Below are positions 2,616-46,545 of a stretch of DNA of 64,000 nucleotides, one piece after another. Location: assembly GCF_900105475.1 (NCBI RefSeq), contig NZ_LT629777.1, positions 4,898,001 to 4,962,000 on the forward strand, in the 5' to 3' direction. This stretch comes from Pseudomonas asplenii (lineage in GTDB: Bacteria; Pseudomonadota; Gammaproteobacteria; Pseudomonadales; Pseudomonadaceae). A program made the translations under genes and the position numbers. The notes beneath the pieces were generated by a model. That model saw only the letters and a list, made by a program, of their open reading frames with translations. It made no database searches and was not told the origin of the DNA. The stretch's first letter is position 1; every line of letters starts with the position of its first letter.

Positions 2616-2786
2616 CTTACGCAAGGTGAGTTGGGCGGACGCTTACCCCACTGCGCCACGGAATTCAGTTTTACTAACTCCAGGTGCCACGCCGATATTG
2701 AGCTGCGTCATATCCGACCTCGAATAATAAAGTCTTGGATTTTAAGTAATTAGATGCGGACTTTTTTGCGCCCGCTTACAGTGTCA

Positions 2787-4259: not shown

Positions 4260-4707
4260 TGGACTTTCCTTATTTTTATTAAGTCGAACGAAACTCTGCC
4301 AAAAAAGGCCTGCTTTTGTGCATACACATCATATATAAACATTGGCGCGCAATTAACTTGACGTGCGGGGATTTCTTGGGGGAAGTGGGATTTGAATAAG
4401 CAAGCTTAAGTAAGCCTCGCGCTCGAAGATGGGCTGCGATCGAGCCGTAGCTTGGGCAGCTATATGGGGCAGTCGCAAAGCATTGCTCATACCTGAATAC
4501 TCCGCGTGGCAGTTCATCTGCTTTTATATTTCTTATTTGGCATGCTAGCATGTAAGTGGTTGTTGTCAACTGATTTACGTTCAGTTACGCGACCGTTGCT
4601 CGCCACGAAAGCCGTCCTGGATCTGCGTCCCTTGTAGATCAAGCCTTTGCGCACTAAAGTGGACGAATGCGCACTCCCCTCGATTGCACCTCACCTACCG
4701 AAGACCT
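4260..4707. promoter_or_regulatory. Intergenic control region between monooxygenase and GntR genes
   Basis: This 448-bp AT-rich spacer lies between divergent genes. It holds the palindrome CATGCTAGCATG at 4541-4552. On the minus strand a TTACAT/AAATAT-like promoter could straddle it and would drive the monooxygenase with a long leader of roughly 240 bases. I see no convincing gene in the spacer. Confidence 0.5.
4541..4552. promoter_or_regulatory. Candidate GntR operator, copy 1 (palindrome CATGCTAGCATG)
   Basis: This is a perfect 12-bp palindrome. Read on the minus strand, the sequence CTTACATGCTAGCAT matches 14 of 15 bases with CTTGCATGCTAGCAT at 8308-8322, in the same orientation relative to the downstream operon. 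FadR-type GntR proteins bind short palindromes, and the gntR gene lies next to this copy. Assignment to that regulator is inference. Confidence 0.5.
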
Positions 4708-5385
4708 ATGCATACGCCAAACAAAAAATTCGCGATCTATCAAGAAATCTTGCAGCGCTTGCTAACCCGCCGCTATCGCTTCGGCGAGAAAATTTTCGTG
4801 AAGGAAATTGGCGAATCGACGGGAGTCAGTCGGCAGCCAATAATGACCGCACTGAACAGCCTGCAAGAGCGGGGATTTGTTCAAATCATTGCACAGGTTG
4901 GCTGCCAAGTGGTGCAACCGAGCCCAGATGAGGTTGCTGATTTCTATCGAATGTTCGCCAATACCGAAGGCCTGATCGCAAGCCTTGCAGCAGAGCGCGG
5001 AACGCCTCTGGAGGTCGCAAGGCTTCAAGAGTTGAATGAGCAAATCGCACGGATCAACCCAGCCCACAGTGACGCCTCGGAGAGCTATAGAAACCTGAAC
5101 GTTGACTTCCACCGGCTTCTCCATGCGATGGCACGGTCACCTATCGTGTCGACACGGCAGATGGCCAATTTCGAACTGTCAGACTTTTTCATCGTTCAAA
5201 GTTGTGGCTTTCAGGCGCACCTGCCTGACGTAACCGGCGAACATGACGAGATAATCGCAGCGCTGAGCACCCGCAACGACAAACAGTGTAAAAAGGCGGC
5301 GATGGCGCACATTGACAGCGTATCAAGGCATGTTATCGAGGCAATGCAGCGCCTGCACAGCGAGGAGATGGCTGCCACGGTTTGA
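4708..5385 (+). CDS. GntR-family regulator, FadR/FCD subgroup
   Basis: This 225-residue regulator has an N-terminal winged HTH (about residues 8-70; FVKEIGESTGVSRQPIMTAL is the helix-turn-helix). An all-helical FCD effector domain follows (about 80-215), with FHRLLHAMARSP and the later His in EHDEI as probable metal/ligand residues. I chose the ATG at 4708 (MHTPNKKF) over a TTG eight codons upstream. FCD regulators usually respond to an organic acid from the pathway they control. It sits between the divergent monooxygenase and the convergent porin/cupin/ADH operon, so it probably represses both. Confidence 0.88.
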   Translation: MHTPNKKFAIYQEILQRLLTRRYRFGEKIFVKEIGESTGVSRQPIMTALNSLQERGFVQIIAQVGCQVVQPSPDEVADFYRMFANTEGLIASLAAERGTPLEVARLQELNEQIARINPAHSDASESYRNLNVDFHRLLHAMARSPIVSTRQMANFELSDFFIVQSCGFQAHLPDVTGEHDEIIAALSTRNDKQCKKAAMAHIDSVSRHVIEAMQRLHSEEMAATV

Positions 5386-24226: not shown

Positions 24227-25753
24227 TTATAACGCCTCTGCGCTATCGAGCCGTGCCAACAGGCTTTCGCCACGTTGCCACAACGCCTCTTGCCGCGCCT
24301 GCGGCATGCCATCGAGGCTGTGATAGATCAACGCCAGCCGCGGGTTGGCTGAAAGCGGTTGGCGATGGCGAATGAGGAAATGCCAATACAGCGCATTGAA
24401 CGGACAGGCATCCTCCTCCACGGCCAGCTCGACCTTGTAGCTGCACGCCTGACAATGATCGGACATGCGCTGGATATAACGGCCACTGGCGCAGTAGGGT
24501 TTGGACCCCAGGTAGCCGCCATCGGCATGCATCACCATGCCCAGGGTGTTGGGCAGTTCGACCCAGTCGAAGGCATCCAGGTAGACCGCCAGGTACCACT
24601 CGCAGATTGCGGCAGGCGCGATGCCGGCCAGCAGCGCGAAATTGCCGGTGACCATCAGTCGCTGGATATGATGGGCGTAGCCCAGTTCCAGGGTCTGGCC
24701 GATGACCTGGGCCATGCAGCGCATGCGGGTCTGCCCGGTCCAGTAGAACTCGGGCAGCGTCCGTTCGTTGCCCAGGTAGTTGAGCCCGGCGTATTCGGGC
24801 ATCCGCAGCCAGTAGATACCCCGCACGTACTCGCGCCAGCCGATCAACTGGCGGATGAAACCCTCGGCGGCATTGAGCGGCACCCTTCCCTCGCGCCAGG
24901 CCGTGTCGACGTCGTCGCACAGTTGGCGAACATCCAGCAGGCCGATGTTCAGCGCGGCACTGATGCGCGCATGGAACAGATACGGTTCGCCCTCGGCCAT
25001 CGCATCCTGATAATCACCAAAGGCTGTCAGGCCGAATTCAAGAAAGTGTGTCCACAGTTCCCTGGCCTGGTCGTGGGTCACCGGGTAGTCGAAGGCGTCG
25101 ACCGTGCCGTAATGCGTTGCGAAACGCTCGCGCACCAAATCCACGACCGCGGCCGTGATCGCATCCTGGGTGAAATGCGCCGGGAAAGGCCCACGCAATC
25201 CCCGCGGCAGTGACTTGCGATTATCCCCGTCGAAGTTCCAGGCGCCGCCCACCGGCCGGCCATCGGGCTCCATCAACAGGTTGCAGCGCTTGCGCATGCC
25301 CCGATAGAAGTGCTCCATGCGCAATTGCTTGCGACCGGCTGCCCAGCGCGCAAAGGCTTCCCGGGAACACAGGAAACGTGTATCGCGGTGCCAGGTGAGC
25401 GCCAGCCCGGCCTCGCGCAAGGCCTGTTCCAGGCGCCACTCGCCGCATTCGGTCACATGCAGTTCGTCGACACCCAGCCTGGCCTGCCAACGCTCAAGTT
25501 CGCCGGCGATGCTGCCACTGTTGTCCGGCTCGTCCAGTTGCACGTAGTGCACCCGCCAGCCCTGCTCGCGCAGGGCTTGGGCGAAGTGGCGCATGGCGCT
25601 GAAGATGAGCACGATCTTTTGCGGGTGATGCGGCACATAACGCGCCTCACCGTCGACCTCGGCCATCAGCAAGGCGTCGCGTGCCGGGTCCAGTGCGCGC
25701 AACACCGCCAGGTCGAAAGAAAGCTGGTCGCCCAACACCAGGCCCAGGCGCAT
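24227..25753 (-). CDS. Cryptochrome/photolyase-related protein, FeS bacterial type
   Basis: This 508-residue protein belongs to the FeS bacterial cryptochrome/photolyase class (DUF523-like photolyase-related). It has the N-terminal Rossmann start MRLGLVLGDQLSF, the FAD region (NIGLLDVRQLCDDVDTAW, then LIGWREYVRGIYWL) and a cysteine set YCASGRYIQRMSDHCQACSY followed by C near the end, which should hold an [4Fe-4S] cluster. Members repair (6-4) photoproducts or sense light. The ATG at 25753 lies 8 bp after the upstream gene, and the in-frame extension to 25828 is inside that gene. It is the last gene of an operon with an operator upstream. Confidence 0.87.
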   Translation of the reverse strand: MRLGLVLGDQLSFDLAVLRALDPARDALLMAEVDGEARYVPHHPQKIVLIFSAMRHFAQALREQGWRVHYVQLDEPDNSGSIAGELERWQARLGVDELHVTECGEWRLEQALREAGLALTWHRDTRFLCSREAFARWAAGRKQLRMEHFYRGMRKRCNLLMEPDGRPVGGAWNFDGDNRKSLPRGLRGPFPAHFTQDAITAAVVDLVRERFATHYGTVDAFDYPVTHDQARELWTHFLEFGLTAFGDYQDAMAEGEPYLFHARISAALNIGLLDVRQLCDDVDTAWREGRVPLNAAEGFIRQLIGWREYVRGIYWLRMPEYAGLNYLGNERTLPEFYWTGQTRMRCMAQVIGQTLELGYAHHIQRLMVTGNFALLAGIAPAAICEWYLAVYLDAFDWVELPNTLGMVMHADGGYLGSKPYCASGRYIQRMSDHCQACSYKVELAVEEDACPFNALYWHFLIRHRQPLSANPRLALIYHSLDGMPQARQEALWQRGESLLARLDSAEAL

Positions 25754-25761
25754 CTTCTGGG

Positions 25762-26067
25762 CTACCACTGGATGGCCAGACTGACCGGCACTCGCAAGGG
25801 TTCGATCGGGCCGTCGCGCTGGCCACACATCTCGTCGTGTACCACCTGCTGCACCAGCATGCAGCGCAAGGGCGGCACATCGGCGAGCAGTTGTCGCAAC
25901 TCGGTGATCGAGCGCAGGTGCAGCGCTTGGCCTCGCGCATCACACAGGGTCTGCGGCCCTGCGCCACTCAGCGCGCGAAGGACGTAAAAACCGCCTTCCA
26001 GTGACAGCAGTTCAAGCTCATCGATGGTACCGGCGTGAGCCAGCTCGGTCAGGTCCTGCAGGTTCAT
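25762..26067 (-). CDS. DUF6482-like small protein
   Basis: This 101-residue protein is of a type common in Pseudomonas beside stress or light genes (LELLSLEGGFYVLRALSGAG). It has no membrane segment or recognised catalytic residue. The ATG overlaps the stop of the preceding DUF3833 gene (ATGA). The DUF name is from memory and the role is unknown. Confidence 0.65.
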   Translation of the reverse strand: MNLQDLTELAHAGTIDELELLSLEGGFYVLRALSGAGPQTLCDARGQALHLRSITELRQLLADVPPLRCMLVQQVVHDEMCGQRDGPIEPLRVPVSLAIQW

Positions 26068-26602: not shown

Positions 26603-27151
26603 TCACTCTCCTTGCGGGTTTGCGGCCAGGCCGAGCAGGCGCTGGCGCAGTTGCTGGTCACGGGCACGCGGGTCGAGCCAGATGGCGAAGAACGTCTGGG
26701 CGAAAGCCGGATCGGCGATTTCGCGGCTCAGTTGGCCGTCGACATAAAAGCGGCAGCCCTGACCCGGCAGGTACAGACCGGTGATGCGCATGCCCGGGCG
26801 GACATCGACAAAGGCTTCTCGCATCATCTGCGCCCAGCGCGCCTCGGTGGCAGGGGCCAGCGGCTGCTCGGCCAGGCGCTTGATTTCGTCCAGGCTCGCC
26901 TGCACCAGCGTGTCCCGAGACAGCGCGCGGTGGTAGATCAATTCCAGCGCGAAGGGCTGCTGCCAGCCCTGCACGGCCCCTGCACTCCACACCCGGGCGG
27001 TATACAGGCGCAGGCCGAACCAACTGAACTCGGCAGTGCCGATCAGGCGAGCGCCGCTCACTGCGGGGCGCCAGTCCGACCAGGCGGGTGACGCATTCAT
27101 GATCAGTAGGCTCAAGGCAAACAGCCTGAGCGCCGGAATTCTGCGTGCCAT
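26603..27151 (-). CDS. Chalcone-isomerase-like secreted protein
   Basis: This 182-residue protein has a signal peptide (MARRIPALRLFALSLLIMNA, cleavage near SPAWS) and a chalcone-isomerase-like fold (WFGLRLYTARVWS and ALELIYHRALSRDTLVQASLDE). Bacterial members lack known isomerase activity and may bind lipids. It is the first gene of the photolyase operon, immediately downstream of the TGTACA repeats. I start at the ATG at 27151 because the frame upstream crosses the operator. Confidence 0.8.
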   Translation of the reverse strand: MARRIPALRLFALSLLIMNASPAWSDWRPAVSGARLIGTAEFSWFGLRLYTARVWSAGAVQGWQQPFALELIYHRALSRDTLVQASLDEIKRLAEQPLAPATEARWAQMMREAFVDVRPGMRITGLYLPGQGCRFYVDGQLSREIADPAFAQTFFAIWLDPRARDQQLRQRLLGLAANPQGE

Positions 27152-27177
27152 GGGTGGACACCGGAAATCGATTGATA

Positions 27178-27214
27178 TTGTACAAGCATATATCTTTGTA
27201 CAAGTTTTGTATAA
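27178..27214. promoter_or_regulatory. Candidate LitR/CarH-type light operator (TGTACA-N12-TGTACA)
   Basis: TTGTACAAG occurs at 27178-27186 and 27196-27204, giving TGTACA-N12-TGTACA; a third variant TTGTATAA is at 27207-27214. As I recall, the MerR-type light regulators of Pseudomonas (LitR/PplR) bind T(G/A)TACA-N12-TGTA(C/T)A. The sites overlap a plausible minus-strand promoter 27-63 bp upstream of the chalcone-isomerase-like start. Assignment depends on that recalled consensus. Confidence 0.6.
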
Positions 27215-27321
27215 ATATCTGAGGGCCTGTGCCGATTCATGATTCTCGGGACCGCCCCCATGAAAGCTGGGCTCTAGAAGGTAGGCATATCGGCGCATCG
27301 ACGAGGCCTGCCCCTGTGAGA

Positions 27322-27369
27322 ATTTGTCGCAGAATGACAAATTAACTATTCAGTTAATTAGCAAGCTAA
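27322..27369. promoter_or_regulatory. Stacked palindromes upstream of gcd
   Basis: Three successive perfect inverted repeats occur: ATTTGTC-N7-GACAAAT (27322-27342), AATTAACT-N4-AGTTAATT (27340-27359) and TTAGC-N2-GCTAA (27358-27369). They end 39 bp before the gcd ATG and may cover its promoter (TTGTCG, 17 bases, TATTCA). They look like sites for one or more dimeric repressors. Confidence 0.4.
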
Positions 27370-27408
27370 GGGTATAGTCAGCGCATTCACACAGCGAGAC
27401 GTTCCATC

Positions 27409-29826
27409 ATGAAACAACCTTCCCGGGCCAGTGGCCTCACCCGATTCATTCTCTACGGACTGGGCATTATCATCGCCCTGCTCGGCCTGATCCTGGCAGC
27501 AGGCGGTGTGCGCCTGGTGATGCTGGGCGGCAGCGGCTACTTCCTGATTGGCGGGCTGGCCATGGCTATCGCCGGTGTCCTGATCGCCCGCCGCAAGCCG
27601 GCCGGTGCCTGGCTGTTCGCCGCATTCCTGGTCGGCACCGCGCTTTGGGCGTTGGTGGACACTGATCGCAGCTTCTGGCCGATGTTCTCCCGCCTGTTCA
27701 TGTTCAGCGTCATCGGCCTGGTGGTCGCACTGGTCTACCCGAGCCTGGTGCGCGCCTCCGGCCGCAGCGCCGGACGTGGCGCCTACGGCCTGGCCGGGGT
27801 GCTGGCGATTGCACTGGTCTGGGCGGTGGGCAACATGTTCGTCGCGCATCCGAGCGTGCCGGCCACCGGTAACGGGCCGGCGCTGACACCGGTTGATCCG
27901 GCCAAGGCACAGAAGGATTGGGCGCACTACGGCAACACCGAGGGTGGCAGCCGCTTCGCGGCGCTGGATCAGATCAACCGCACCAACATCAATCAGTTGA
28001 AGGTGGCCTGGACCTATCACACCGGCGATGTGGCCATCAGCGACGGCAACGGCGCCGAAGACCAGCTGACACCGCTGCAGGTTGGCGACAAGGTGTTCAT
28101 CTGCACCCCACACAACAACCTGATCGCGCTGGATGCCGACACCGGCAAGGAGTTGTGGAAGAACCCGATCAACGCCCAGTCCAAGGTCTGGCAGCGTTGC
28201 CGCGGCATGGCGTACTTCGATGCGAGCCAGCCGGTGCAGCAGCCAACTCAACCGAACAGCGTGCCGGTGATCGCCGCCACTGTGCCGGCTGGCGCCAATT
28301 GCCAGCGGCGCCTGCTGACCAACACCATCGACGCCCGCCTGATCGCGGTGGACGCCGACACCGGTGCCTTCTGCGAAGGTTTCGGCAACCATGGCCAGGT
28401 CGACCTGAAGGCCGGCCTCGGCGATGTGCCGGACTCCTACTACCAACTGTCGTCCGCGCCGCTGATGGCTGGTACCACCGTGGTGGTCGGCGGGCGTGTC
28501 GCCGACAACGTCCAGACCGACATGCCCGGTGGCGTGATCCGCGGTTTCGACGTGATTACCGGCGCCATGCGCTGGGCGTTCGATCCGGGCAACCCGCAAG
28601 ACAAGCAGGCGCCCACTGACGGCAAGACCTACGTGCGCAGCACCCCGAACAGCTGGGCGCCGATGTCGTACGATCCGGCGATGAACACCGTGTTCTTGCC
28701 GATGGGCAGCTCGTCTACCGATATCTACGGTGTCGAGCGCACCGCCCTGAACCACAAGTACGGTGCCTCGATCCTCGCGCTGGACGCCAGCACGGGCGCC
28801 GAGAAGTGGGTCTACCAGACCGTGCACAACGACCTCTGGGACTTCGACCTGCCGATGCAGCCGAGCCTGATCGACTTCACCAGAGATGACGGCAAGCAAG
28901 TACCGGCCGTCGTCATCGGCACCAAGGCCGGGCAGATCTACGTGCTCGACAGGGCCACCGGCTAGCCGCTGACCCGGGTCGAGGAAGTGCCGGTCAAGGC
29001 CGCCAACATTCCCAACGAGCCCTACTCGCTGACCCAGCCCAAATCGGTGGGTATGCCGCAGATCGGTGCCCAGACCCTGACCGAATCGGACATGTGGGGC
29101 GCGACCCCGTTCGATCAGTTGCTGTGCCGTATCGACTTCAAGAAGATGCGCTACGACGGCCTCTACACCGCGCCGGGCACTGACCTGTCGCTGAGCTTTC
29201 CGGGCTCCCTGGGCGGCATGAACTGGGGCAGTCTGTCGACCGACCCGGTGAATGGTTTCATCTTCGTCAACGACATGCGCCTGGGCCTGTGGATCCAGAT
29301 GATCCCCTCGGTCAACAAGGGCTCGGCGGCGGGTGGTGGTGAAGCGTTGAACACCGGCATGGGCGCGGTACCGCTCAAGGGCACGCCCTATGCGGTGAAC
29401 AAGAACCGCTTCCTCTCGGTCGCCGGCATTCCGTGCCAGGCGCCGCCTTATGGCACCCTGACCGCCATTGATATGAAGACCCGCCAGATCGCCTGGCAGG
29501 TCCCGGTCGGCACCGTAGAAGACACCGGCCCGCTGGGCATCCGCATGCACCTGCCGCTGCCGATCGGCCTGCCGACCCTCGGCGGCACCCTGTCGACCCA
29601 GGGCGGCCTGGTGTTCATCGCCGGTACCCAGGACTTCTACCTGCGCGCCTTCGACAGCGGCAACGGCAAGGAAATCTGGAAATCCCGCCTGCCCGTGGGC
29701 AGCCAGGGCGGCCCGATGACCTACGTCTCACCCAAGACCGGCAAGCAGTATGTGGTGATTACCGCCGGTGGCGCGCGGCAATCGACCGATCGTGGGGATT
29801 ACGTCATGGCATACGCCTTGCCGTGA
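27409..29826 (+). pseudogene. gcd: Membrane PQQ glucose dehydrogenase interrupted by in-frame TAG
   Basis: The frame encodes a full 805-codon quinoprotein glucose dehydrogenase: five N-terminal TM helices (residues 10-145), then an eight-bladed PQQ propeller (HYGNTEGGSRFAALDQIN, LWDFDLPMQPSL and so on). Codon 519 is TAG (28963-28965) in DRATG-TAG-PLTRVEE; homologues carry Lys or Gln there, so one base change would do it. The reading frame continues to a normal stop at 29826 with no other damage. Gcd oxidises glucose to gluconate in the periplasm and feeds ubiquinone. The product should be truncated and inactive unless suppressed or the base is an error. Confidence 0.92.
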
Positions 29827-29856
29827 TCCACCTGCCCTCCTGCGGCGGGTAAACAG

Positions 29857-29892
29857 GTCTTGCGGGGCGGCTTCACGCCAGCCCCGCAAGAC
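29857..29892. terminator. Strong hairpin after gcd (candidate terminator)
   Basis: A perfect 12-bp stem (GTCTTGCGGGGC and GCCCCGCAAGAC) has a 12-base loop and sits 31 bp after the gcd stop. It lacks a T-run (atccctgt follows), so termination may need Rho, or it may be a bidirectional structure. Confidence 0.45.
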
Positions 29893-30004
29893 ATCCCTGT
29901 ACCGCGCGGGTAACGGGCGGATACAAACCTTCACAATCACTCACATCCCTGTCGACCGTTGCGAGGCACACTGAGCGTCCTGCAATGATTCCTGTCGAGT
30001 CCAC

Positions 30005-31525
30005 ATGCCCTCTTCTCACCCCTCGGCCAAACGCTGGCTGATCCTGTTTGCCGTGATGCTGGCTTTCCTGCCGGTGGTGATCGACATGACGATCCTGCAC
30101 ATCGCCATTCCGTCGCTGACCCTGGCTTTGCAGGCATCAGGCACCGAAGTCCTCTGGATTATCGATATCTACCCGCTGCTGATGGCCGGATTGCTGGTGC
30201 CGATGGGGACCCTGGCCGATCGCATTGGCAATCGGCGCATCCTGTTGAGCGGGCTATTGATATTCGGCGTTGCGTCCCTGCTGGCCGCCTTTGCCCAGAC
30301 GCCGGCCATGCTCATTGGTGCTCGGGTCCTGCTCGCGCTGGGCGGGTCGATGATCATGCCTTGTGTGCTGGGGATCATCCGCCGGACCTTCGAGGATGAA
30401 CAGGAACGGGCCATGGCGTTGGGTCTGTGGGGCACCGTCGGTGCCGCAGGGGCAGCGGTCGGGCCGTTGATCGGTGGCGGACTGCTGGAGCATTTCTGGT
30501 GGGGCTCGGTATTCCTGATCAATGTTCCGGTCGTGCTGATCGTGGTCGTGTTTGCGTCTGTATTGTTGCCTCGCCGCGAAATCACCACGCCAGGCGGTTG
30601 GGCCTTCGGTCAGGCGCTGATCCTCATTGCCGGTATCATTTCAGTGGTGTATGGCATCAAGGCCGGTGTCGGCGCCACGCAATCCCTGGCACTCACCGTC
30701 TCGATTCTGGTTTTCGGCCTGGCGTTGCTGGCCGTGTTCGCCCGCCTGCAACTGCGGGCGCAAAATCCGATGCTGGATCTGTCGCTGTTCTCGCATCCGG
30801 CGATCCTGGCGGGCATGATCATGGCGATTGTCACCTGCGGCGCATTGGCTGGCGTGGAGCTGACCCTCGCCCAGGAACTGCAGTACGTATTGGGCAAGAC
30901 GCCGTTGCAGGCCGGGATTTTCATGATCCCGATCATGACGGCAGCCGCCATCGGCGGCCCCTGCGCCGGCTACCTGAGCAACCTGTTCGGTCTGCGCCTG
31001 GTTGCCAGCCTGTCACTGGTCATTTCTGCGGTGGTGCTCGCGCTGCTGGCCCAGGCCGACTTCCATCATCCCGGCGTCTGGGTGCCGGCGTTGCTGGGCA
31101 TGCTGGGGCTGGTGCTGAGCACCGGGCTCACGGCCTCTTCCATCGCCATCATGGGCTCGGTCGAGGCCAGCAAGGGCGGTGCGGCGGGTTCGCTGGAAGT
31201 GACAGGCTATGAGTTGGGCAGCGGGCTGGGGATCACCTTTTTTGGCGTGTTCATGTCCAGGGTGTTCGCACGGACGCTCGAACTGCCGCCGCAGCTTGAG
31301 CAACCGCTGGCGACCCAGGCTACCCGTTCCATCGGGGATGCCCACGTCGTGGCACAACAGCTGGACGCAGACCAGGCAAGCGCACTGATCGAAGCGGCGA
31401 AGGTGGCCTTCTCGACCACCCACTCGGTTCTGTTGACCACCTCGGCCGTGCTGATCGGCGTGCTGGCGGTGATCGTATTCTTCATGCTTGCCAACTACGC
31501 GCCGAAGAGCGCCACACACGGCTAA
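30005..31525 (+). CDS. DHA2-family MFS efflux transporter (SmvA-like)
   Basis: This 506-residue protein has 14 expected TM helices. Motif A-like GTLADRIGNRRILL, motif C-like GLWGTVGAAGAAVGPLIGGG and the opening MTILHIAIPSL fit the DHA2 drug:H+ antiporters (SmvA, methyl-viologen and quaternary-cation export). The substrate cannot be told. The start has no strong ribosome site. The gene is convergent with the SnoaL-like gene. Confidence 0.85.
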   Translation: MPSSHPSAKRWLILFAVMLAFLPVVIDMTILHIAIPSLTLALQASGTEVLWIIDIYPLLMAGLLVPMGTLADRIGNRRILLSGLLIFGVASLLAAFAQTPAMLIGARVLLALGGSMIMPCVLGIIRRTFEDEQERAMALGLWGTVGAAGAAVGPLIGGGLLEHFWWGSVFLINVPVVLIVVVFASVLLPRREITTPGGWAFGQALILIAGIISVVYGIKAGVGATQSLALTVSILVFGLALLAVFARLQLRAQNPMLDLSLFSHPAILAGMIMAIVTCGALAGVELTLAQELQYVLGKTPLQAGIFMIPIMTAAAIGGPCAGYLSNLFGLRLVASLSLVISAVVLALLAQADFHHPGVWVPALLGMLGLVLSTGLTASSIAIMGSVEASKGGAAGSLEVTGYELGSGLGITFFGVFMSRVFARTLELPPQLEQPLATQATRSIGDAHVVAQQLDADQASALIEAAKVAFSTTHSVLLTTSAVLIGVLAVIVFFMLANYAPKSATHG

Positions 31526-36393: not shown

Positions 36394-36845
36394 ACAACGA
36401 CCTGCGTATTCTGATCATCGACGACCAACGCCCCAACCTCGACCTGATGGAGCAACTGTTGGTGCGCGAAGGCCTGAGCAACGTGCTGAGCAGCACCGAG
36501 CCGTTGCGGACCCTCGACCTGTTCAACAGCTTCGAGCCGGACCTGGTGATTCTCGACCTGCACATGCCGGAGTTCGATGGTTTCGCGATTCTCGAGCAAC
36601 TGAACCGGCGTATTCCGGCGGGCGAGTACCTGCCGATCCTCGTCCTGACTGCCGATGCGACCCGCGACACCCGTCTGCGGGCCCTGGCGCTGGGGGCCAA
36701 GGATTTCATCAGCAAACCGCTGGATGCCCTGGAAACCATGCTGCGGGTGTGGAACCTGCTGGAGACGCGTGCGCTGTATAACACCTTGCGCACGCTGATT
36801 CCGGCGGATCAGATCGCGCTGGTAGGCCCTGGCATCAGGTCATAG
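36390..36845 (+). CDS. Single-domain response regulator
   Basis: This 151-residue receiver has no output domain beyond a short helical tail. Residues are VNNDLRILIIDDQRPN, the phospho-Asp in VILDLHMPEFDGFAIL and Lys in FISKPLDALE. The GTG start at 36390 overlaps the stop of the hybrid kinase gene. It likely receives phosphate from that kinase and acts by protein contact. Its 3' end overlaps the convergent GST gene by 37 bp. Confidence 0.87.
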   Translation: MNNDLRILIIDDQRPNLDLMEQLLVREGLSNVLSSTEPLRTLDLFNSFEPDLVILDLHMPEFDGFAILEQLNRRIPAGEYLPILVLTADATRDTRLRALALGAKDFISKPLDALETMLRVWNLLETRALYNTLRTLIPADQIALVGPGIRS

Positions 36846-37441
36846 GGGTGCTGCCAGCCTGGCATGGCTTGAATGCGCGCTTTCCAGGCCTCGATATTGG
36901 GGAACTCCGACTTGGAGATGCCGGTGTCCTCGGGCATGAAGACATAACCGGCCAGGGACAGATCGGCGATTGTCAGCCGCTCCCCGACCAGAAACGGCGT
37001 CTTGCCAAGGTGGTTATCGACAATCTGATAGGCCGCTCGCACGCGTTCGCGAAAGAACTGGGTGACCGGCGTCTCTCCGGACTTCTGCAGGCCGTACATG
37101 AAGCGCAAGGTTGCGTAGTAACTGGTGAATTTGTGGTTATCGAACAGCATCCAGCGCCAGATCTCCTGGCGTTCTTCTTCATTTTCAGGCCCGAATTTAC
37201 CGGTCACTTGCGCCAGATGATCGAGAATCAGCGCAGACTGTGTCAGCTTCTTGCCCTGATGCTCCAGCACCGGGGCTTCGCCCTGTTCGTTGACCGTCTC
37301 GCGCCACTCCCTGGTCCTGGTCTCCCCGTTCAGGTAGTCGACAAATACCTGCTCCCACTTCTGCTGGGCCAGCGCGAGGAAAAGCGCAACCTTGTACGAG
37401 TTACCCGAAAGCGCGAAGCAATGTAACTTGAACTCTGACAT
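36809..37441 (-). CDS. Glutathione S-transferase family protein
   Basis: This 210-residue protein has an N-terminal thioredoxin-like domain (FKLHCFALSGNSYKVALFLAL; Ser likely the GSH-activating residue) and an all-helical C-domain (LTIADLSLAGYVFMPEDTGI). The ATG at 37441 is preferred over a TTG eight codons upstream. The catalytic substrate is unknown. Confidence 0.88.
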   Translation of the reverse strand: MSEFKLHCFALSGNSYKVALFLALAQQKWEQVFVDYLNGETRTREWRETVNEQGEAPVLEHQGKKLTQSALILDHLAQVTGKFGPENEEERQEIWRWMLFDNHKFTSYYATLRFMYGLQKSGETPVTQFFRERVRAAYQIVDNHLGKTPFLVGERLTIADLSLAGYVFMPEDTGISKSEFPNIEAWKARIQAMPGWQHPYDLMPGPTSAI

Positions 37442-37586
37442 TCTCTGGACGTCCGTATTTTCCAATCATCGGGACGTCACTGTACCCTCTTTCAAGTCGT
37501 TCGGGCTTGTAGCCCACGGCGGCAACACGGCTGAAGCCACCTTCAGGGCAAGGCTTGCCGTTTGGTGCGCTGACCACCCTCGTCAT

Positions 37587-38669
37587 TCACTTATGCAAAA
37601 TCGCCTGGTGAATATCCTGCAGGGCCATGATCCGCTGCGCGGCATTAAGCTTGATGGCTTCCTTGGGCATCCCGAATACCACGCAGCTGGCTTCATCCTG
37701 GGCAACCGTCGCGGCGCCGGCGTCGAGCATCTCCTTGAGGCCCCGCGCGCCATCATCGCCCATGCCGGTCATGATGATGCCGGTGGCGTTCTTGCCGGCA
37801 AACTTGGCCACGGAGCGAAACAACACGTCCACCGATGGACGATGGCGGTTGACCAACGGGCCATCAATGACCTGGGCATGGTAGAAGGCACCGCTGCGGG
37901 TGACCATCAGGTGTTTGCCACCGGGGGCGATCAGGGCCAGGCCGGGCAGGATGCGGTCGTTGTTGCGGGCTTCACGGACTTCGATCTGGCACAGGCTGTC
38001 GAGGCGTTCGGCGAAGGACGCGGTGAACTTCTCCGGCATGTGCTGCACGACCACCATGCCGGGGCATACCCTCGGCAGCGCAGTCAGTACGGTTTCCAGG
38101 GCTTGGGTGCCGCCGGTCGAAGTGCCGATGGCGACGATGCGTTCGGTAGTCTGGGCCATGGCGTGGCCGTTGGCGGCGGGCAGGATCGCGTCCGCGCTGA
38201 GTTTGCTGGCCGGCACAGACGCCGGCATCGCTGGTGCGGCGCGTTTGCCCAGGTTCCTGACGTTGACATTCGCTGCTGCACGGATTGCCGCGACCAGTTC
38301 GGCCGCCGAGTCGATCAGGAAGTTTTTCAAGCCGGTGGTCGGTTTGGTAATGATTTCCACGGCACCGGCGGACAACGCCTGCAAGGAGGTTTCCGCGCCT
38401 TTCTGGGTCAGCGAGGAGCAGATCACTACCGGGGTTGGCCGTTCAGCCATGATTTTGCGCAGGAAGGTAAGGCCGTCCATACGCGGCATTTCCACGTCCA
38501 GCACGATCACATCCGGCCATTCCCGGGCGAGCTTGTCCATGGCGAAAATCGGGTCGGAGGCGGCCCCCATGACATGGATGTCCGGCGTATCGTTGAGCAG
38601 ACTCAGTAGTACCTGGCGCACCACAGCCGAATCATCGACCAGCAGCACACTGATTTTCTTGTTAGGCAT
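37587..38669 (-). CDS. cheB: Chemotaxis methylesterase/deamidase CheB
   Basis: This 360-residue protein has a REC domain (residues 5-120, phospho-Asp in [14 protein letters not shown]) and a CheB esterase (165-355). The esterase has catalytic Ser in [10 protein letters not shown], His in [11 protein letters not shown] and Asp in [12 protein letters not shown] place the start at the ATG at 38669 ([10 protein letters not shown]); the longer frame to 39206 crosses cheD in another frame and is spurious. It is the last gene of the chemosensory operon, 2 bp after cheD. Confidence 0.94.
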
Positions 38670-38671
38670 TT

Positions 38672-39163
38672 TCAGAGGGTTCCCATTGGTTGGTGCCGGA
38701 CCCAGACGTTGCCGTTCCAAAGGTCGAATACAATTGTTCGGTAGCCGGTACTGCCCATGTCCTGGGCGGTCAGGCACAGTCGATGACGCTCGGCCAAGGC
38801 CAGCGCCGCCCGAACATTCAAGCTGGCCACGTCCTGCGCAGGCAGGTTGCGGCGCTGTTCGGGAAACATCTCGCCACCACCGAACAGCTTGACCTGATAA
38901 TCCTGCGGCGTTGTGCCGTTGGCGCGAGCGTGACGAAACAGCAGTTCGACTGCCTCGTCGCCATATCTGCCATCCAGGGCATGGTCCCTGCGCAAGCGTG
39001 CCGGCAGCATGAAATGGCACATGCCACCGATCCGCCGTTGCGGGTGCCAGAACGTGAACGCCACGCATGACCCGAGCAGGGTCCGCAGACGCGTCGGCCG
39101 GGTCGCGAAGCTGACCTCCCCCGGCGCCAATACCACTTCGCTCACATCGACGGGCTTTTTCAT
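38672..39163 (-). CDS. cheD: Chemoreceptor glutamine deamidase CheD
   Basis: This 163-residue CheD has catalytic Cys in [10 protein letters not shown], His in GGMCHFML and Thr/Gly in [18 protein letters not shown]. It deamidates receptor Gln residues and in other systems partners CheY-P phosphatases. Its ATG overlaps the cheR stop (ATGA). The match is clear along the length. Confidence 0.94.
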
Positions 39164-39969
39164 GGTTTGCGATAAATCGACGGAGCCACCAGCTTGAGCG
39201 TGTCATTCACGCCGTGGAGGCTTTCCGAATGGCTGATGATGAAGAAGCCACCAGGCTTCAGGCGTGGCAGCAGGCGTGAAACCACCTGGCTTTTGGTCTT
39301 CTGGTCGAAGTAGATCATGACGTTGCGCAGGAAAATCACCTCGAACTCCCCCAGGTCGGGCAGGCTTTCGTTCAGGTTGACCTGGACGAAATTGACCCGG
39401 TTGCGCAGGGCCTTGTCGACCAGGAAGGTGCCCTCCTGGCGACCAATGCCCTTGAGGCAATACTTGGTCAGCAACGGCATGGGCAAGGTGCCGGCGCGCT
39501 CCATGGGGTAATGCCCCGTGCGCGCCCTGGCCAGCACCTGGGTACTGATGTCCGAGCCGATCACCTCCCAGGGTGTGGTGCCCAGGCTTTCGGCCAGGGT
39601 CATGGCCAGGCTGTAGGGCTCTTCGCCGGAGGAGCTGGCGGCGCTCCACACGCGAAACAGCTTGCCTGGCGCCACCTTGGGCAGTACCTGCTGGCGCAAG
39701 AAATCGAAGTGCTTGGGCTCGCGAAAAAAGTAGGTCTCATTGGTGGTCAGCAGGTCCAGTGCAACCTGCAACTCCCCCTTGTGCTGATCGGTCATGATCA
39801 GCTTGAAGTACTCCCCATAGCTCTCCAGTTCATAGTGCTTGAGGCGTTTGAACAGGCGCCCGGCCACCAAGGCTTTCTTGGCCTGCGACAGGTTGATGCC
39901 GGCCGCGCGGTACAACCAGGACTGGAACTGGCCGAACTCGCGATCGTCGAGAGAAGAGGTGTCTGGCAT
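39160..39969 (-). CDS. cheR: Chemotaxis methyltransferase CheR
   Basis: This 269-residue CheR has an N-terminal helical domain (residues 5-75, [20 protein letters not shown]) and a SAM-dependent methyltransferase domain ([20 protein letters not shown] and [16 protein letters not shown]). The neighbouring receptor ends in EFTRF, a fit to the x-aromatic-x-x-aromatic tail that tethers CheR proteins. It methylates Glu residues in the receptor methylation helices. Confidence 0.94.
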
Positions 39970-39978
39970 GATCGGGCC

Positions 39979-40518
39979 TTAACGCGGATCGAGGTCGAGC
40001 CCCGGCGCCTGGGCGGCCTCGGCGAGGCTGGACATCTCGTCAATGGACAGCACCTTGTCCACCGCCAGCACGATCACGAACTTGCCCTCGACCTTGGCCA
40101 TGCCGCTGATGAAATCGGCGCGAATCCGCGCACCGAAGCTGGGGGGTGGTTCGATCTGGTCTGCCGAGATGTCCTGCACCGCAGACACGGTATCCACCAG
40201 CAACCCGATGTCCTGAGGCTGGCCCTCCTCCGTCCTGGCCTCGATGATGATCACGCAGGAGCGCCGGGTAATGGTCGAAGCCACACGGCCAAAGCGCGCC
40301 GACAGGTCGACCACCGGCACGACGGAACCGCGCAGGTTGATCACGCCGCGCACGAAGGTCGGCATCATCGGCACCATGGTCAGGCTGCCGTACTCGATAA
40401 TTTCCTTGATCCCCAGGATACCGAGGGCGAACATCTCGCCACCGAGTATGAAGGTCAGGTACTGCGCCTCCTCGCTTGTCGCAACCGCAGTGTGACGGGT
40501 GGTCATTACAGCGCCCAT
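39979..40518 (-). CDS. cheW: Chemotaxis coupling protein CheW
   Basis: This 179-residue CheW has the core YLTFILGGEMFALGILGIKE and VRGVINLRGSVVPVVDLSARFG. The ATG at 40518 has AGGGAG upstream; an earlier in-frame start is weaker. CheW bridges receptors and CheA in the array. It sits between the mcp and cheR genes, as in che2-type clusters. Confidence 0.93.
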   Translation of the reverse strand: MGAVMTTRHTAVATSEEAQYLTFILGGEMFALGILGIKEIIEYGSLTMVPMMPTFVRGVINLRGSVVPVVDLSARFGRVASTITRRSCVIIIEARTEEGQPQDIGLLVDTVSAVQDISADQIEPPPSFGARIRADFISGMAKVEGKFVIVLAVDKVLSIDEMSSLAEAAQAPGLDLDPR

Positions 40519-40553
40519 GTCATTCTCCCTTTGAGCCGGCATCGATCCTGCGA

Positions 40554-42209
40554 TCAGAAGCGGGTGAATTCCGATTCGTCCAAGGCACCGGCCATGTTCT
40601 GAGCGAATGCCTTGCGCGGTGCCTGCGCCATGGGACGCTGCGCCTGGCGATCGGGTTTGTTGCCGGCATTGTCCAGGTTGCGAGCAGGTGCAGCCCTGGG
40701 TGTGGCATCGAGCACGAAGAAGCTCATGGCCTGCTGCAACTGCTCGGCCTGGCTGCTCATTTCTTCTGCGGTGGCGGCCAGTTCCTCACTGCTCGAGGCG
40801 TTCTGCTGGGTGACCTGGTTGAGCTGGGTCATCGCCATGTTGATCTGCGCGACACCGGCGGCCTGCTCCTCGGACGCGGCACTGATTTCCTGCACCAGAT
40901 CGGAAGTCTTGGTGATCGAGGGGACCATTTCATCGAGCAGCTTGCCGGCCTTCTCGGCCATGTCCACGCTGCTGGAAGACAACTCGCCGATTTCCTGGGC
41001 GGCCACCTGGCTGCGCTCGGCCAGCTTGCGCACTTCGGCGGCCACTACCGCGAAGCCCTTGCCATGCTCACCGGCCCGCGCGGCCTCGATGGCAGCGTTG
41101 AGGGCGAGCAGATTGGTCTGGTAGGCGATGTCATCAATAATGCTGATACGCTGGGCGATTTTTTTCATCGCCACCACCGTCTGCTGCACCGATTCGCCGC
41201 CGTCGGCGGCCTCCTTGGCCGCCTTGCTGGCCATGCCATCGGTGACCTTGGCGTTCTCGGTATTCTGGTTGATGCTGGCGCTCATCTGCTCCACCGACGC
41301 ACTGGTCTCCTCGACACTGGCCGCCTGCTCGCTGGTGGCCTGGCTCATCGATTGCGCGGTGGCGCTGACCTGCTCCGAGGCGCTGGCCAGATTGTCGGCG
41401 GCGTTGCGCACATCGCCGATGATATGCGCCAGCTTGCCAACCATGTTGCGCATGGCGTTGAGCACCATGCCGGTCTCATCCTTCGCACCCGATTCGATAT
41501 GGGCGTTGAGACTGCCCTCGGCCAGTTGCTCGGCCGCTGCCGCCGCGTGGCGTAACGGCCGCGAGATGATCCGGGCGATGAACAATGCCAGCCCCAGGCC
41601 GACCAACAGTGCAACGATCAAGGCCGCGACGATCGACAGACGTGAGCTTTCGTACAATTCCGAGCCCCGATCACCGGCCAACGTGGCGCCGACGTCGTTG
41701 AGTTCGATCATTTTCTGCAGGCGACTCGTCAGCTCATCAAAATGCACCTTGGACTCGCCGCGCAGCACGCCACGAGCCTGATCCACCTCATTCTGCCGGG
41801 ACAGTTCGAACAGTTTCTGACTGGCCGCCAGGTAGGTACCCCAGGCGCTCTTGACGCTGTCGAGAAGCAGACGATCTTCGTCGTTCGATAACAATTTCTC
41901 GTAGGTTTCGAGCCTGGTTTCGAACTGCTGGCGCGCCTCGACGGCTTCGCGTTCCGCCTGGACCTTTTCCTCGGCCACTTCGGTGCTGATGTGACGGTTT
42001 TCCTTCAGGCGATAGTTGGCTGCAAAAAAACGCATGCCTGCCGCTGCGCGCATGGATGGCAACCAGTTGCCCCTGATGTCCTGGGCCGCCTGGTTGACAC
42101 TGCCGAGCTGGACGATAGCGAAGGCTCCCATGCCGGCGGTCAGCGCCAGGACTATCAGGAAAGAGCTGATCAGCTTGATTGAAATTTTCAGATCGTAGAA
42201 CCATTTCAT
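40554..42209 (-). CDS. Transmembrane methyl-accepting chemotaxis protein
   Basis: This 551-residue receptor has a TM at residues 10-32, a periplasmic four-helix-bundle domain (about 35-185), a second TM (about 190-212, [20 protein letters not shown]), a HAMP and a signalling hairpin. The hairpin tip is [20 protein letters not shown]. The C-terminus is SEFTRF, matching the CheR-tether consensus (x-[HFYW]-x-x-[HFYW]). The ATG at 42209 has GGAGG seven bases upstream. It lies between cheA and cheW. The ligand is unknown. Confidence 0.93.
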
Positions 42210-42238
42210 CGAGGAACCTCCATGGAATTGCAAATACG

Positions 42239-44284
42239 TCAGCGACCAACGACAGGAGACGACTGAGGTGCCTGGGCCATACGGGCTTCCAGGTGTACGA
42301 TTTGGTTGAGCAATGCCGGCACATCCAGAATCAGGGCCACCGCGCCGCTGCCCAATATGGTCGAACCGCTGATACCACGCAGTGAGCCGAAGAGCTTGCC
42401 CAGGGGCTTGATCACGATCTGGAACTCGCCGAGCAACTCGTCCACCACCAGACCGGCCTTGTGCTCGGCGTAACGCACCACCACCACGTTCTGCCGCCGA
42501 GCCGCAGGGCCTTCGTGGTTGAAGTGATCGCGCAAGTCCACCAGGGGCAATACCTCGCCACGCAGGCCCAGATACCCCTGGTCGCGGCTGGATTGGCGCT
42601 GGTGTTCATCCAGTTCGATGCATTCCTGGACCATGTCCAGGGGAATCACGTAGGTCGCGTGGTCGATGCCCACCAGGAAACCATTGATGATCGCCAGGGT
42701 CAGCGGCAGGCGAATGCGCACCACGGTGCCCTGGCCGGGGCGGCTGTCCAGGTCGACGGTACCGCGCAACAGCGAGATGTTGCGCTTGACCACGTCCATG
42801 CCCACGCCACGTCCGGACAGGTTGGTCACCGCTTCGGCGGTAGAGAAACCGGCTTCGAAGATCAGGTTGTAGATCTCCTGGTCGCTGAGCACCGCGCCGC
42901 TGGCGACCAGCCCTCGTTCCTGAGCCTTTTCCAGGATGCGCTCACGGTTGAGGCCCGCTCCGTCATCGGCGATTTCGATGACGATGCTGCCCGAGTCGTG
43001 GTAAGCATTGAGGCTCAGGTGACCCTTGCTCGGCTTGCCAGCCGCACGCCGGGCTTCGGCGCTTTCGATACCGTGATCCATGGCATTGCGCAACAGGTGC
43101 ATGAGCGGATCGCCGATCTTCTCCACCACCGTCTTGTCCAGTTCGGTTTCCGCACCGCTGATGATCAGGTCGATGTCCTTGCCCAACTCCTGGCTGACGT
43201 CGCGTACCACGCGGCGGAAGCGGTTGAACGTATCTCCGATAGGGATCATGCGCAGGTGCAGGGCACTGTCGAGAATGTCCTCCACCAGACCTGACACGGT
43301 CGAGGTGGACTCTTGCAATGGAGCGTTGTTGCAGGAACGGGCCAGCAGACTCGCGCCAGCGCTGGCGATCACCAGTTCGCCGACCAGGCTGATCAACTCG
43401 TCGAGCTTGTCGGCATTGACCCGCACATAGTTGCCATCCCGGGCTTTCGCCTCACTGGTCACCGGTAGCCGCTGAGGCGCGGCAACCGTGGCTTGTGACT
43501 CAGGCAGCGCGACCAGCTCGGTACCCTGGGCAAGCGTGCCGTCAGGGGTTTCGTCGACGGCGCGGATATGTACTTCGCACTCGTCACGCACGAAGTCGAA
43601 GACTTCATTGAGGGTGGCATGGCTGGCGGCGGAACGCAGGTCGATTTCGAAGCCCAGGTAGCAGCTCTCCGGATCCCAGCTTTCAAGGGCCGGAATGCTA
43701 TCGGTCAGCGTAGTCACCTGAATCATCTGCCCCAAGGTGTCGAGGTAGCGCAGGAACGACAGCGGGTCCATGCCATTGCGGAACACGTCCACGCCAAAGC
43801 GCAAGGAAATGTGCCATAACACCTCGCCCGACGTGTCCGGACCTGCGCCTGCAACGGCGACTGGCGCGCTTTCGCCGGGCTCGGTTGGTGTCTGGTAGAC
43901 ACTCAGCGAAGCGCGCAAGGCAGCTTCCCGCTCCAGCGCAGGCGGCTGGAGCACCTCGCCCCGATTGGCGACGACTTCGATCAGCTCAAGCATATGGTCG
44001 CCGCACTTGAGCAGTACCGCGATCAGCGCGGCATCCACGGCCACACTGTCATCGCGGATACGGTCGAGCACATCCTCCACGATATGCGTAAAGCTGACGA
44101 TCGGTGCCAGGCCGAACAGCCCGGCGGAACCCTTGATGGTGTGTGCGGCACGGAAAATCGCGCCGATGGCATCCTGATCGCCGGGCTCGTTTTCCAGTTG
44201 CAGCAAGGATTGCTCCATGGCCTGCAACAGTTCACGTGCCTCCACGATGAAAGTCTGCTGTGCCTGATCGAGATTGATGCTCAC
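42239..44284 (-). CDS. cheA: Chemotaxis histidine kinase CheA
   Basis: This 681-residue kinase has P1 Hpt (phospho-His in [16 protein letters not shown]), a P2-like region (residues about 150-270, [15 protein letters not shown]), P3 dimerisation helices ([19 protein letters not shown]), P4 HATPase ([29 protein letters not shown]) and a P5 CheW-like C-terminus. It phosphorylates CheY and CheB. It is directly upstream of the mcp gene and downstream of the STAS gene. Confidence 0.95.
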
Positions 44285-44335
44285 CTGGACTATCCCTGTC
44301 TATCCCTGTCTATCAATGAACCGTCGCGGTGCCGG

Positions 44336-44623
44336 CTAAAAGGCGGGACTGCGGCACAGTTGAAGCGTTTGCGTGACCGTCGGGCTCTTGTCGGTCAGGC
44401 TCAAGGCCATACCGGCGAGGCCGGCTTCACGCTCGATGACTGCAAGCAACTGCAGCCCGGCGCCATCCATTTCGGTGACCTGCGACAGGTCCAGTTCTAG
44501 GCACGCCGCCGCCCCCATCTGTGGCAGCAGCGCGGCCGCCAGTTCGGCGACGGTGTAGATGGTGAGTTCACCGTCAATGCCTACGCGAACCGTATCGGCG
44601 ACGATTTCGCTGGTAACGGACAT
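44336..44623 (-). CDS. STAS-domain protein inside the chemosensory operon
   Basis: This 95-residue STAS (SpoIIAA-like) protein has the core CLELDLSQVTEMDGAGLQLLAV. In phosphorylatable anti-anti-sigma factors the loop reads DSSG; here it reads DGAG, so the usual phospho-Ser is missing. That suggests a scaffold or nonphosphorylated binding role. It lies between cheY and cheA on the same strand. A role with CheA or the receptor is inference; I know of no established one. Confidence 0.85.
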   Translation of the reverse strand: MSVTSEIVADTVRVGIDGELTIYTVAELAAALLPQMGAAACLELDLSQVTEMDGAGLQLLAVIEREAGLAGMALSLTDKSPTVTQTLQLCRSPAF

Positions 44624-44645
44624 GGTTGCCTCCTGGGGCCGGGTT

Positions 44646-45014
44646 TCAGGGCAGGATCAGTTTGGAAACTGCCGCCAGCATCTGTGCCGGCTGGAAGGGC
44701 TTGACCACCCATGCCTTGGCTCCTGCAGCCTGACCTTCGGCCTTTTTCGATTCCTGCGACTCGGTGGTCAGCATGATGATAGGCGTGAACTTGTAGTTGG
44801 CCAGTTTCTTCACCTCCTTGACGAAGGTGATGCCGTCCATGTTCGGCATGTTCACGTCGCTGATGATCAGGTGTACTTTCTGCCCGGTGAGTTTGCTCAG
44901 CGCGTCTTTGCCATCGCTCGCCTCGATCACGTCGTAACCGGCGCTTTTCAAGGCAATCCCGACCACTTGCCGCACACTGCTGGAGTCGTCGACCACTAAT
45001 ACGTTCTTCGCCAT
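44646..45014 (-). CDS. cheY: Chemotaxis response regulator CheY
   Basis: This 122-residue single-domain receiver has acidic residues VVDDSSSVRQ, phospho-Asp in LIISDVNMPNMDGI, Thr in IMLTTESQ and Lys in WVVKPFQP. It is upstream of STAS and cheA in the operon, and its target (flagellar switch or other) is not shown by sequence. Confidence 0.92.
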   Translation of the reverse strand: MAKNVLVVDDSSSVRQVVGIALKSAGYDVIEASDGKDALSKLTGQKVHLIISDVNMPNMDGITFVKEVKKLANYKFTPIIMLTTESQESKKAEGQAAGAKAWVVKPFQPAQMLAAVSKLILP

Positions 45015-45023
45015 GATGGGCTC

Positions 45024-46244
45024 CTAAAAGAAAGTGATTTCTGCTGAACTCTGTTGGGCGGCGGCTGTGCCATGGTGTGTACGCCGCTGTTCGTCGGTGG
45101 CGTAGGTGGATTCCATGCGCGCCAGCCATTGCCGGGCGTCCATGGTTTCGGCCTGGCCCGGCGACTGGCGGGCCTGCAACAGGTGATCGTGCAACGCGGT
45201 GATGTTGTCGCGCACGTGGCTGAGAATCTGGCTGACCCGATCCTGGAATTGCAGGTTGACCAGCACGTCGGTCAGCTCGTCGCGAATCCCGTGGCTTTCC
45301 TGCTTGAGCAGATCGGCGGAGTCGGCCAGGCGACCGGTGATGTCCTGGAAACGTGCAAGTACAAGCTGAATGCTCTGCTCGGACGCGCCGACGGAATGGC
45401 TGTCCTGGTCGGCGCTGCTGGACGCGGCCTGCACCAGTTGGGTAATGGCGTTGTTGATGATGTCGACCTTGGCCGACATCTGCTGGCCGGTCTCGCTGGA
45501 CTTGCTCGACAAGGTGCGTACTGCATCGGCCACCACGGCAAAGCCACGACCGGCCTCGCCGGCACGGGCTGCTTCGATGGCGGCATTGAGGGCCAACAGG
45601 TTGGTTTGCGCGGCAATGGCCGCAACGTCGGCGGCCATGGTCCGCAATTCGCCGGTATAGGCCGTAAGCCCGCGCACCTGGCCGAGTATCTGGTCACGGC
45701 TGGTTTGAGTGGCCTTGAGAGAGTCGATCACCTGGCTCAGCTCGCTGTCGCTGCGCGCCAGCACCTTGAGCGCGCCATCAGCGGCCTGGCCATCCAGTTC
45801 GCCGGCAGCCTGCTGCGAGGCTTGTACCGTCTCCTGCAAGCGCGTGGCGATCCCGCTGAAACGATTGACCAGGCTGACAATTGCCTCTTCGGTCTGTTGG
45901 CGCGAGTTTTCTACCTGCTTGGCCCATATCGGCATGGCCCCCAGCAACACCTCATCGAGCGTCGCCCGTGAAGCCGCACCGTTCTGCGCGGCATCTGCGC
46001 CACTTTGCTCGCTCAGGCCCCGTGCACTCGCGCGAAGCACCGCATCACGTTGTGAGCGCGCGCTCCAGGCGCAAGCCACGAGACCTAGCAGCACCAGGAC
46101 CGCACAAGCCAGCAGGTTGGCCGCAGAGGTCGATTGCACGAGTATCCAGGTAACAGCAGGCACAACAGGGATCAAAGCGAACCAACGAAAACGCGGATGA
46201 CCGGAAATGGAACTGGGGCTAGGACTGGATTGACGCGATATCAT
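45024..46244 (-). CDS. Membrane-anchored chemoreceptor-like protein lacking a ligand domain
   Basis: This 406-residue protein has two adjacent TM helices (residues about 20-65) with almost no periplasmic loop, then an MCP signalling hairpin with tip [21 protein letters not shown] CheZ-like stretch [16 protein letters not shown] follows, and the tail is AEITFF. The ATG at 46244 has AAGGA upstream. It is the first gene of the cheY-cheB operon. It probably senses the membrane or cytoplasm. The exact input is unknown. Confidence 0.85.
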
Positions 46245-46545
46245 GAATTCGATCCTTGAACGTTCTTGCCAATACAAACAACATAGGACTTATCTGCCCG
46301 GTTTGCGGCAACTTTATAGATTCCCCCATGCCTTTCGTCTGGTTTATTGCCAGTCGCTATATTGGTCCGCTCTTCCAGGAGCTTGTGGTGCGGGGTTTAT
46401 CCGCAGTCATATCGGTCTCGGTCAGCGCCCCACCGCTCAATGTGGCGGGGCATCCGGCAGCCACAGCTGCCTCCCACAATGAGCGCGCCATGTGGGAGAC
46501 GGATGCACCTGCAGATAGGCGCCGCAGGCAATGGCGAGTCAGATC
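46245..46545. other. 301-bp spacer between two receptor genes
   Basis: The spacer carries the likely start of the che operon transcript. I see a GC-rich imperfect inverted repeat near 46420-46445 and no convincing gene or terminator. Confidence 0.3.

What the first reader, a model, noticed from the sequence alone, without database searches (positions are those of the whole stretch)
27409..29826. Glucose dehydrogenase gene broken by a single in-frame TAG
Codon 519 is TAG at 28963-28965, inside an otherwise intact 805-codon gcd. The codon sits where homologues carry Lys or Gln, so one base change from AAG or CAG explains it. The frame after the stop is conserved to the last residues, so the loss is recent, the base is an error, or TAG is read through. 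Loss would stop periplasmic gluconate formation and the gluconate-based solubilisation of phosphate.
Basis: partly seen in the sequence, partly recalled or inferred. Interest (0 to 1): 0.75.

Follow-up and report, generated by a model that had tools for sequence, protein, structure and literature searches.

The report
Recently broken glucose dehydrogenase gene
A Pseudomonas chromosome carries a glucose dehydrogenase gene that is complete and well preserved except for one stop codon in its middle, most simply a very recent loss of the enzyme in this strain or a single wrong base in the sequence.

Summary
In detail: an 805-codon gcd at 27409-29826 is interrupted only by TAG at codon 519 (28963-28965). 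Its halves match the membrane PQQ glucose/quinate/shikimate dehydrogenase model up to position 498 and from 500. Of 81 relatives read, 67 carry Lys, 12 Gln, 2 Thr at that codon, none a stop. Dedicated amber suppression is not supported: none of 70 tRNA genes found has anticodon CUA; release factor 1 is intact. The window protein keeps 540 of 540 columns invariant in 16 orthologues. dN/dS on this strain's branch is 0.08 (0.03 after the stop), leaving at most about 4-5% of the branch for neutral decay. So the break is very young, or one wrong base; without reads I cannot separate these. Among 178 sampled Pseudomonas genomes with a listed near full-length gcd match, 2 show an in-frame stop; the other (G031) is at a different codon. 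Genes for PQQ synthesis (pqqF, B, C, E), Edd, glucokinase and a paralogous dehydrogenase are intact. Ordinary; low interest.

The parts
27409..28965 (+). N-terminal part of gcd, 518 codons and the internal TAG: hydrophobic N-terminal stretch (membrane anchor, by sequence and family knowledge) and the first part of the PQQ beta-propeller
   Evidence: TIGR03074 3-498; PF01011 1-332
28963..28965 (+). in-frame TAG at codon 519
   Evidence: relatives K 67, Q 12, T 2 of 81
28966..29826 (+). C-terminal part of gcd after the stop, 286 codons and terminal TGA: rest of the beta-propeller
   Evidence: TIGR03074 500-783; PF01011 334-595; dN/dS on the window branch 0.034

Best explanation
This is an orthologue of the membrane-bound PQQ-dependent glucose dehydrogenase Gcd that was inactivated very recently by a single nonsense substitution at codon 519 in this strain. 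Translation ends after 518 residues, before the last 44% of the PQQ beta-propeller model, so no active enzyme should be made. Shown: the stop, the intact frame on both sides, no CUA tRNA among those found, intact RF1, and no sign of decay. Inferred: that the base is real, that the truncated protein is inactive, and that the strain then uses glucose by the phosphorylating route (Glk and Edd are present).
For: Single internal stop in an otherwise open 805-codon frame; halves join in the family profile with one position between them. 0 of 540 invariant columns changed. Window-branch dN/dS 0.078 overall and 0.034 after the stop (bootstrap 0.008-0.081); the two sister branches give 0.070 and 0.116 overall, 0.013 and 0.051 after the stop; the bootstrap upper limit for a neutral share of the branch is 0.04-0.05. 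No CUA anticodon in the 70 tRNA genes found; RF1 gene intact. Aligned to two P. fuscovaginae genomes, gcd has no gap that breaks the frame: none against IRRI 6609 that is not a multiple of three, and four single-base gaps near 27450-27456 against SE-1 that cancel. A second Pseudomonas (G031) has its own stop in gcd at a different codon, so stops in this gene do turn up.
Against: Nothing here shows that the base is real: no reads and no second isolate of the same species were available. Perfect conservation after the stop is equally what an error, or a functional read-through gene, would show. The stop makes the word CTAG, which is rare here (26 in the window against 230 expected from base composition); this may be read either way.
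Confidence: 0.63

Rival explanations
1. The TAG is a sequencing or assembly error (or a mutation that arose in the sequenced culture), and the strain at large has a working gcd.
For: 540 of 540 invariant columns kept and no relaxation of selection is just what an error would give; none of 81 relatives has a stop there.
Against: The genome is one contig with completeness 100; gcd shows no frame-breaking gap against two relatives. Errors of long-read assemblies are mostly indels (recalled), whereas this is a substitution; but the sequencing method is not known to me.
Confidence: 0.28
2. TAG is read through or suppressed, so that some full-length Gcd is made.
For: Purifying selection shows after the stop (dN/dS 0.034); codon 519 is a tolerant position that holds Lys, Gln or Thr.
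Against: No CUA anticodon among the 70 tRNA genes found; RF1 intact; the RNA from the stop on does not fold better than shuffles (z -0.71); no Rfam match in 27000-30100; none of 81 relatives shares the stop, so nothing suggests a conserved signal.
Confidence: 0.05
3. The gene now works as two proteins, with the second half restarted downstream of the stop and joined to the first in the periplasm.
For: An ORF can start at GTG 28987 and run to 29826.
Against: The restart would lose the first residues after the stop and would carry no membrane or export part of its own, since those lie in the first half (inference from the sequence); the break falls inside one propeller model; none of the 80 relatives has an internal stop.
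Confidence: 0.02

Closest known systems
Membrane-bound PQQ-dependent glucose dehydrogenase (Gcd, TIGR03074 / PF01011), Pseudomonas orthologues such as P. fuscovaginae IRRI 6609 (L006) and SE-1 (L007)
   Same: 95% and 94% amino-acid identity over 805 residues, same length; flanking DNA collinear from about 24.2 kb (IRRI 6609) or 26.6 kb (SE-1) to 36.8 kb of the window
   Different: an in-frame TAG at codon 519; both relatives are open
gcd of the unnamed Pseudomonas genome G031
   Same: a single in-frame TAG in an otherwise full-length gcd
   Different: at its own codon 674, aligned to window codon 677, about 158 codons further on; a separate event in a gene 85% identical
Laboratory gcd deletion in Pseudomonas putida EM42 (PMC13332142, passages read)
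   Same: loss of periplasmic glucose oxidation, glucose entering by ABC transport and phosphorylation, as described there
   Different: there an engineered deletion (with hexR); here a natural or erroneous single stop with no phenotype measured

Membership tests
Membrane-bound PQQ glucose dehydrogenase (Gcd) | matches TIGR03074 and the PF01011 propeller along the whole protein | tested here: met
   two halves cover 3-498 and 500-783 of TIGR03074 and 1-332 and 334-595 of PF01011; each half alone is below the TIGR03074 curated cut-off (661.7 and 420.8 against 832.65 bits)
Membrane-bound PQQ glucose dehydrogenase (Gcd) | one uninterrupted reading frame | tested here: not met
   TAG at codon 519
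Membrane-bound PQQ glucose dehydrogenase (Gcd) | family-conserved residues kept | tested here: met
   0 of 540 columns invariant in 16 orthologues changed in the window protein
Membrane-bound PQQ glucose dehydrogenase (Gcd) | glucose oxidation activity | not testable with these tools
   needs an assay; TIGR03074 also covers quinate and shikimate dehydrogenases, and the assignment to glucose rests on identity with Pseudomonas gcd genes as commonly named (recalled)
Stop codon recoding (amber suppression) | tRNA with anticodon CUA | tested here: not met
   70 of 70 RF00005 hits in the own genome read with ARAGORN as 70 distinct genes, none CUA; a suppressor too odd for RF00005 would be missed
Stop codon recoding (amber suppression) | loss or weakness of release factor 1 | tested here: not met
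   TIGR00019 hit of 551.6 bits, over cut-off, no stop inside
Pseudogene | relaxed selection or further lesions after the break | tested here: not met
   dN/dS 0.034 after the stop, no second stop or frameshift; this makes the break very young and does not exclude it

The most novel reading that the evidence does not exclude
The strain makes functional Gcd despite the TAG, by efficient read-through of UAG at a tolerant codon without a dedicated suppressor tRNA, which would explain why selection still shows on the second half.
Probability: 0.04. Interest if true: 0.6.

Novelty: new member of a known kind. Interest (0 to 1): 0.2.

Why it matters
If the stop is real, this strain is a natural recent gcd mutant in a clade whose two nearest named relatives keep the gene, and it predicts a clear phenotype: little or no direct oxidation of glucose to gluconate, and weaker acid-based phosphate release. 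It also warns that a family search could list gcd as present here. If it is an error, it matters only for the record.

Tried and rejected
Read-through or suppression: tested with the tRNA set, RF1, downstream RNA folding and Rfam; not supported. The window itself has no tRNA gene. Old pseudogene: rejected by dN/dS and by conservation. Poor assembly: gcd shows no frame-breaking gap against two P. fuscovaginae genomes; I did not tabulate the other genes one by one, and a single-base gap near 38674 against both relatives was not examined. A substitution error is not excluded by any of this. Shared stop in relatives: the only other stop found (G031) is at another codon. Plasmid records: 29 records with a match to 20-44 kb, none covering 80% of it; the five listed rows matched only in and around gcd at 74-78% identity; not pursued. 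Solved structures: 26 distinct PDB sequences matched, all the names shown being PQQ-type dehydrogenases or similar and the best a methanol dehydrogenase at 3.2e-28; no close Gcd structure appeared. A phenotype in print: P. fuscovaginae is described as oxidising glucose in OF medium and unable to utilise 2-ketogluconate (PMC4675855, passages only); this concerns the species and not this strain, and is no evidence on gcd. Paper searches for natural gcd nonsense alleles in Pseudomonas (1, 16 and 1 papers hold the terms; 1, 15 and 1 listed) showed no such case in titles and abstract starts; of these I opened passages of PMC13332142 only. Paper searches were seen as listings, apart from the passages, and did not identify the strain.

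Full report
What is there. The frame from 27409 to 29826 on the + strand encodes an 805-residue membrane PQQ-dependent dehydrogenase and has one internal stop, TAG at 28963-28965, codon 519. The two halves match the family model TIGR03074 from position 3 to 498 and from 500 to 783 of 783, and the propeller model PF01011 from 1 to 332 and from 334 to 595. So the frame passes through the stop without a shift and nothing else is missing. The window lies in a one-contig genome of 6.53 Mb.

Relatives. In the collection of named genomes (one per species) the closest are Pseudomonas fuscovaginae IRRI 6609 (95% amino-acid identity) and SE-1 (94%). The residues on either side, Gly518 and Pro520, are invariant in an alignment of 17 sequences, 16 orthologues and the genome's own paralogue, while 519 itself varies.

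How often gcd is stopped. Two overlapping samples of the genus were searched: 298 genomes, of which 253 matched at E 1e-100 or better, and 398 genomes, of which 242 matched at 1e-250 or better. Each list of matches is cut at 150 rows. From I kept the 141 rows with at least 76% identity and dropped 9 rows at 60-65%; one search gave 149 genomes. Together these are 178 different genomes with a near full-length gcd match, and two have a stop inside: this genome and G031. A gene broken by a frameshift, or lost, would not appear in these lists, so this is a count of stops among listed genes and not of all losses. The G031 stop lies at its own codon 674, aligned to window codon 677, so the two are separate events.

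Age of the break. Against the two P. fuscovaginae genes, dN/dS on the window's own branch is 0.078 for the whole gene and 0.034 for the part after the stop; the sister branches give 0.070 and 0.116 for the whole gene and 0.013 and 0.051 after the stop. With 200 bootstrap samples the share of the branch that could have passed without selection is at most about 0.04-0.05 (97.5% limits 0.041 whole, 0.037 before and 0.050 after the stop; NG86 distances of three sequences only). Of 540 columns invariant in 16 orthologues, 220 of them after the stop, the window protein departs from none. The break is therefore very young, or not real.

Read-through. RF00005 found 70 tRNA genes in the genome; read with ARAGORN they are 70 distinct genes and none has anticodon CUA. 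Release factor 1 is present and intact. The 118 bases from the stop on fold no better than shuffles (z -0.71, 36 of 200 shuffles at least as stable), and Rfam has no match in 27000-30100 at its gathering scores. Of 18 long ORFs picked by eye in the window, some of them overlapping, one ends in TAG. Low-level read-through by near-cognate tRNAs cannot be excluded.

Consequence. Ending at residue 518 removes positions 333-595 of the 595-position propeller model, so I infer no activity. Other genes of the pathway are in place: pqqF, pqqB, pqqC and pqqE (pqqD and pqqA were not identified here), Edd and glucokinase. I did not look for the glucose ABC transporter. In P. putida a gcd deletion leaves glucose to the ABC transporter and phosphorylation route (PMC13332142, passages read). 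The genome also holds a second, intact 835-aa member of TIGR03074, scoring over the cut-off, 43% identical to the IRRI 6609 Gcd; whether it oxidises glucose is unknown, and so 'no gluconate' is a prediction and not a result.

Error or mutation. The genome is a single contig and gcd shows no frame-breaking gap against two relatives, which speaks for a fair assembly. But one wrong base would look exactly like this, and neither reads nor a second isolate could be examined. I put real recent loss at 0.63, error or culture artefact at 0.28, read-through at 0.05 and a working split protein at 0.02.

Verdict.

Noticed in passing
36821-46545: In P. fuscovaginae IRRI 6609 and SE-1 the alignment of this region jumps from about 36821 directly to about 46540 (L178, L179); part of the stretch between (37.6-42.5 kb) matches other contigs there (L180, L181). 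The window genome carries about 9.7 kb here that lies elsewhere, or was not seen, in the relatives.
   Followed up: no
L116 (G031:C41:20000-27500), gcd at 2649-5054: An unnamed Pseudomonas genome has its own in-frame TAG in gcd at codon 674 of its gene, separate from the one in the window.
   Followed up: partly
1-64000: The word CTAG occurs 26 times against about 230 expected from base composition; one of them is made by the gcd stop.
   Followed up: no
24227-25828 (-), 26603-27340 (-) and 30005-31525 (+): Neighbours of gcd are a photolyase-related protein (DPRP, PF04244), a chalcone isomerase-like protein (PF16036) and an MFS efflux transporter resembling the SmvA family but below its curated cut-off.
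   Followed up: no
38674: A single-base alignment gap against both P. fuscovaginae genomes, near the end of a short minus-strand ORF (38672-39163); it may lie between genes or change the end of that ORF.
   Followed up: no
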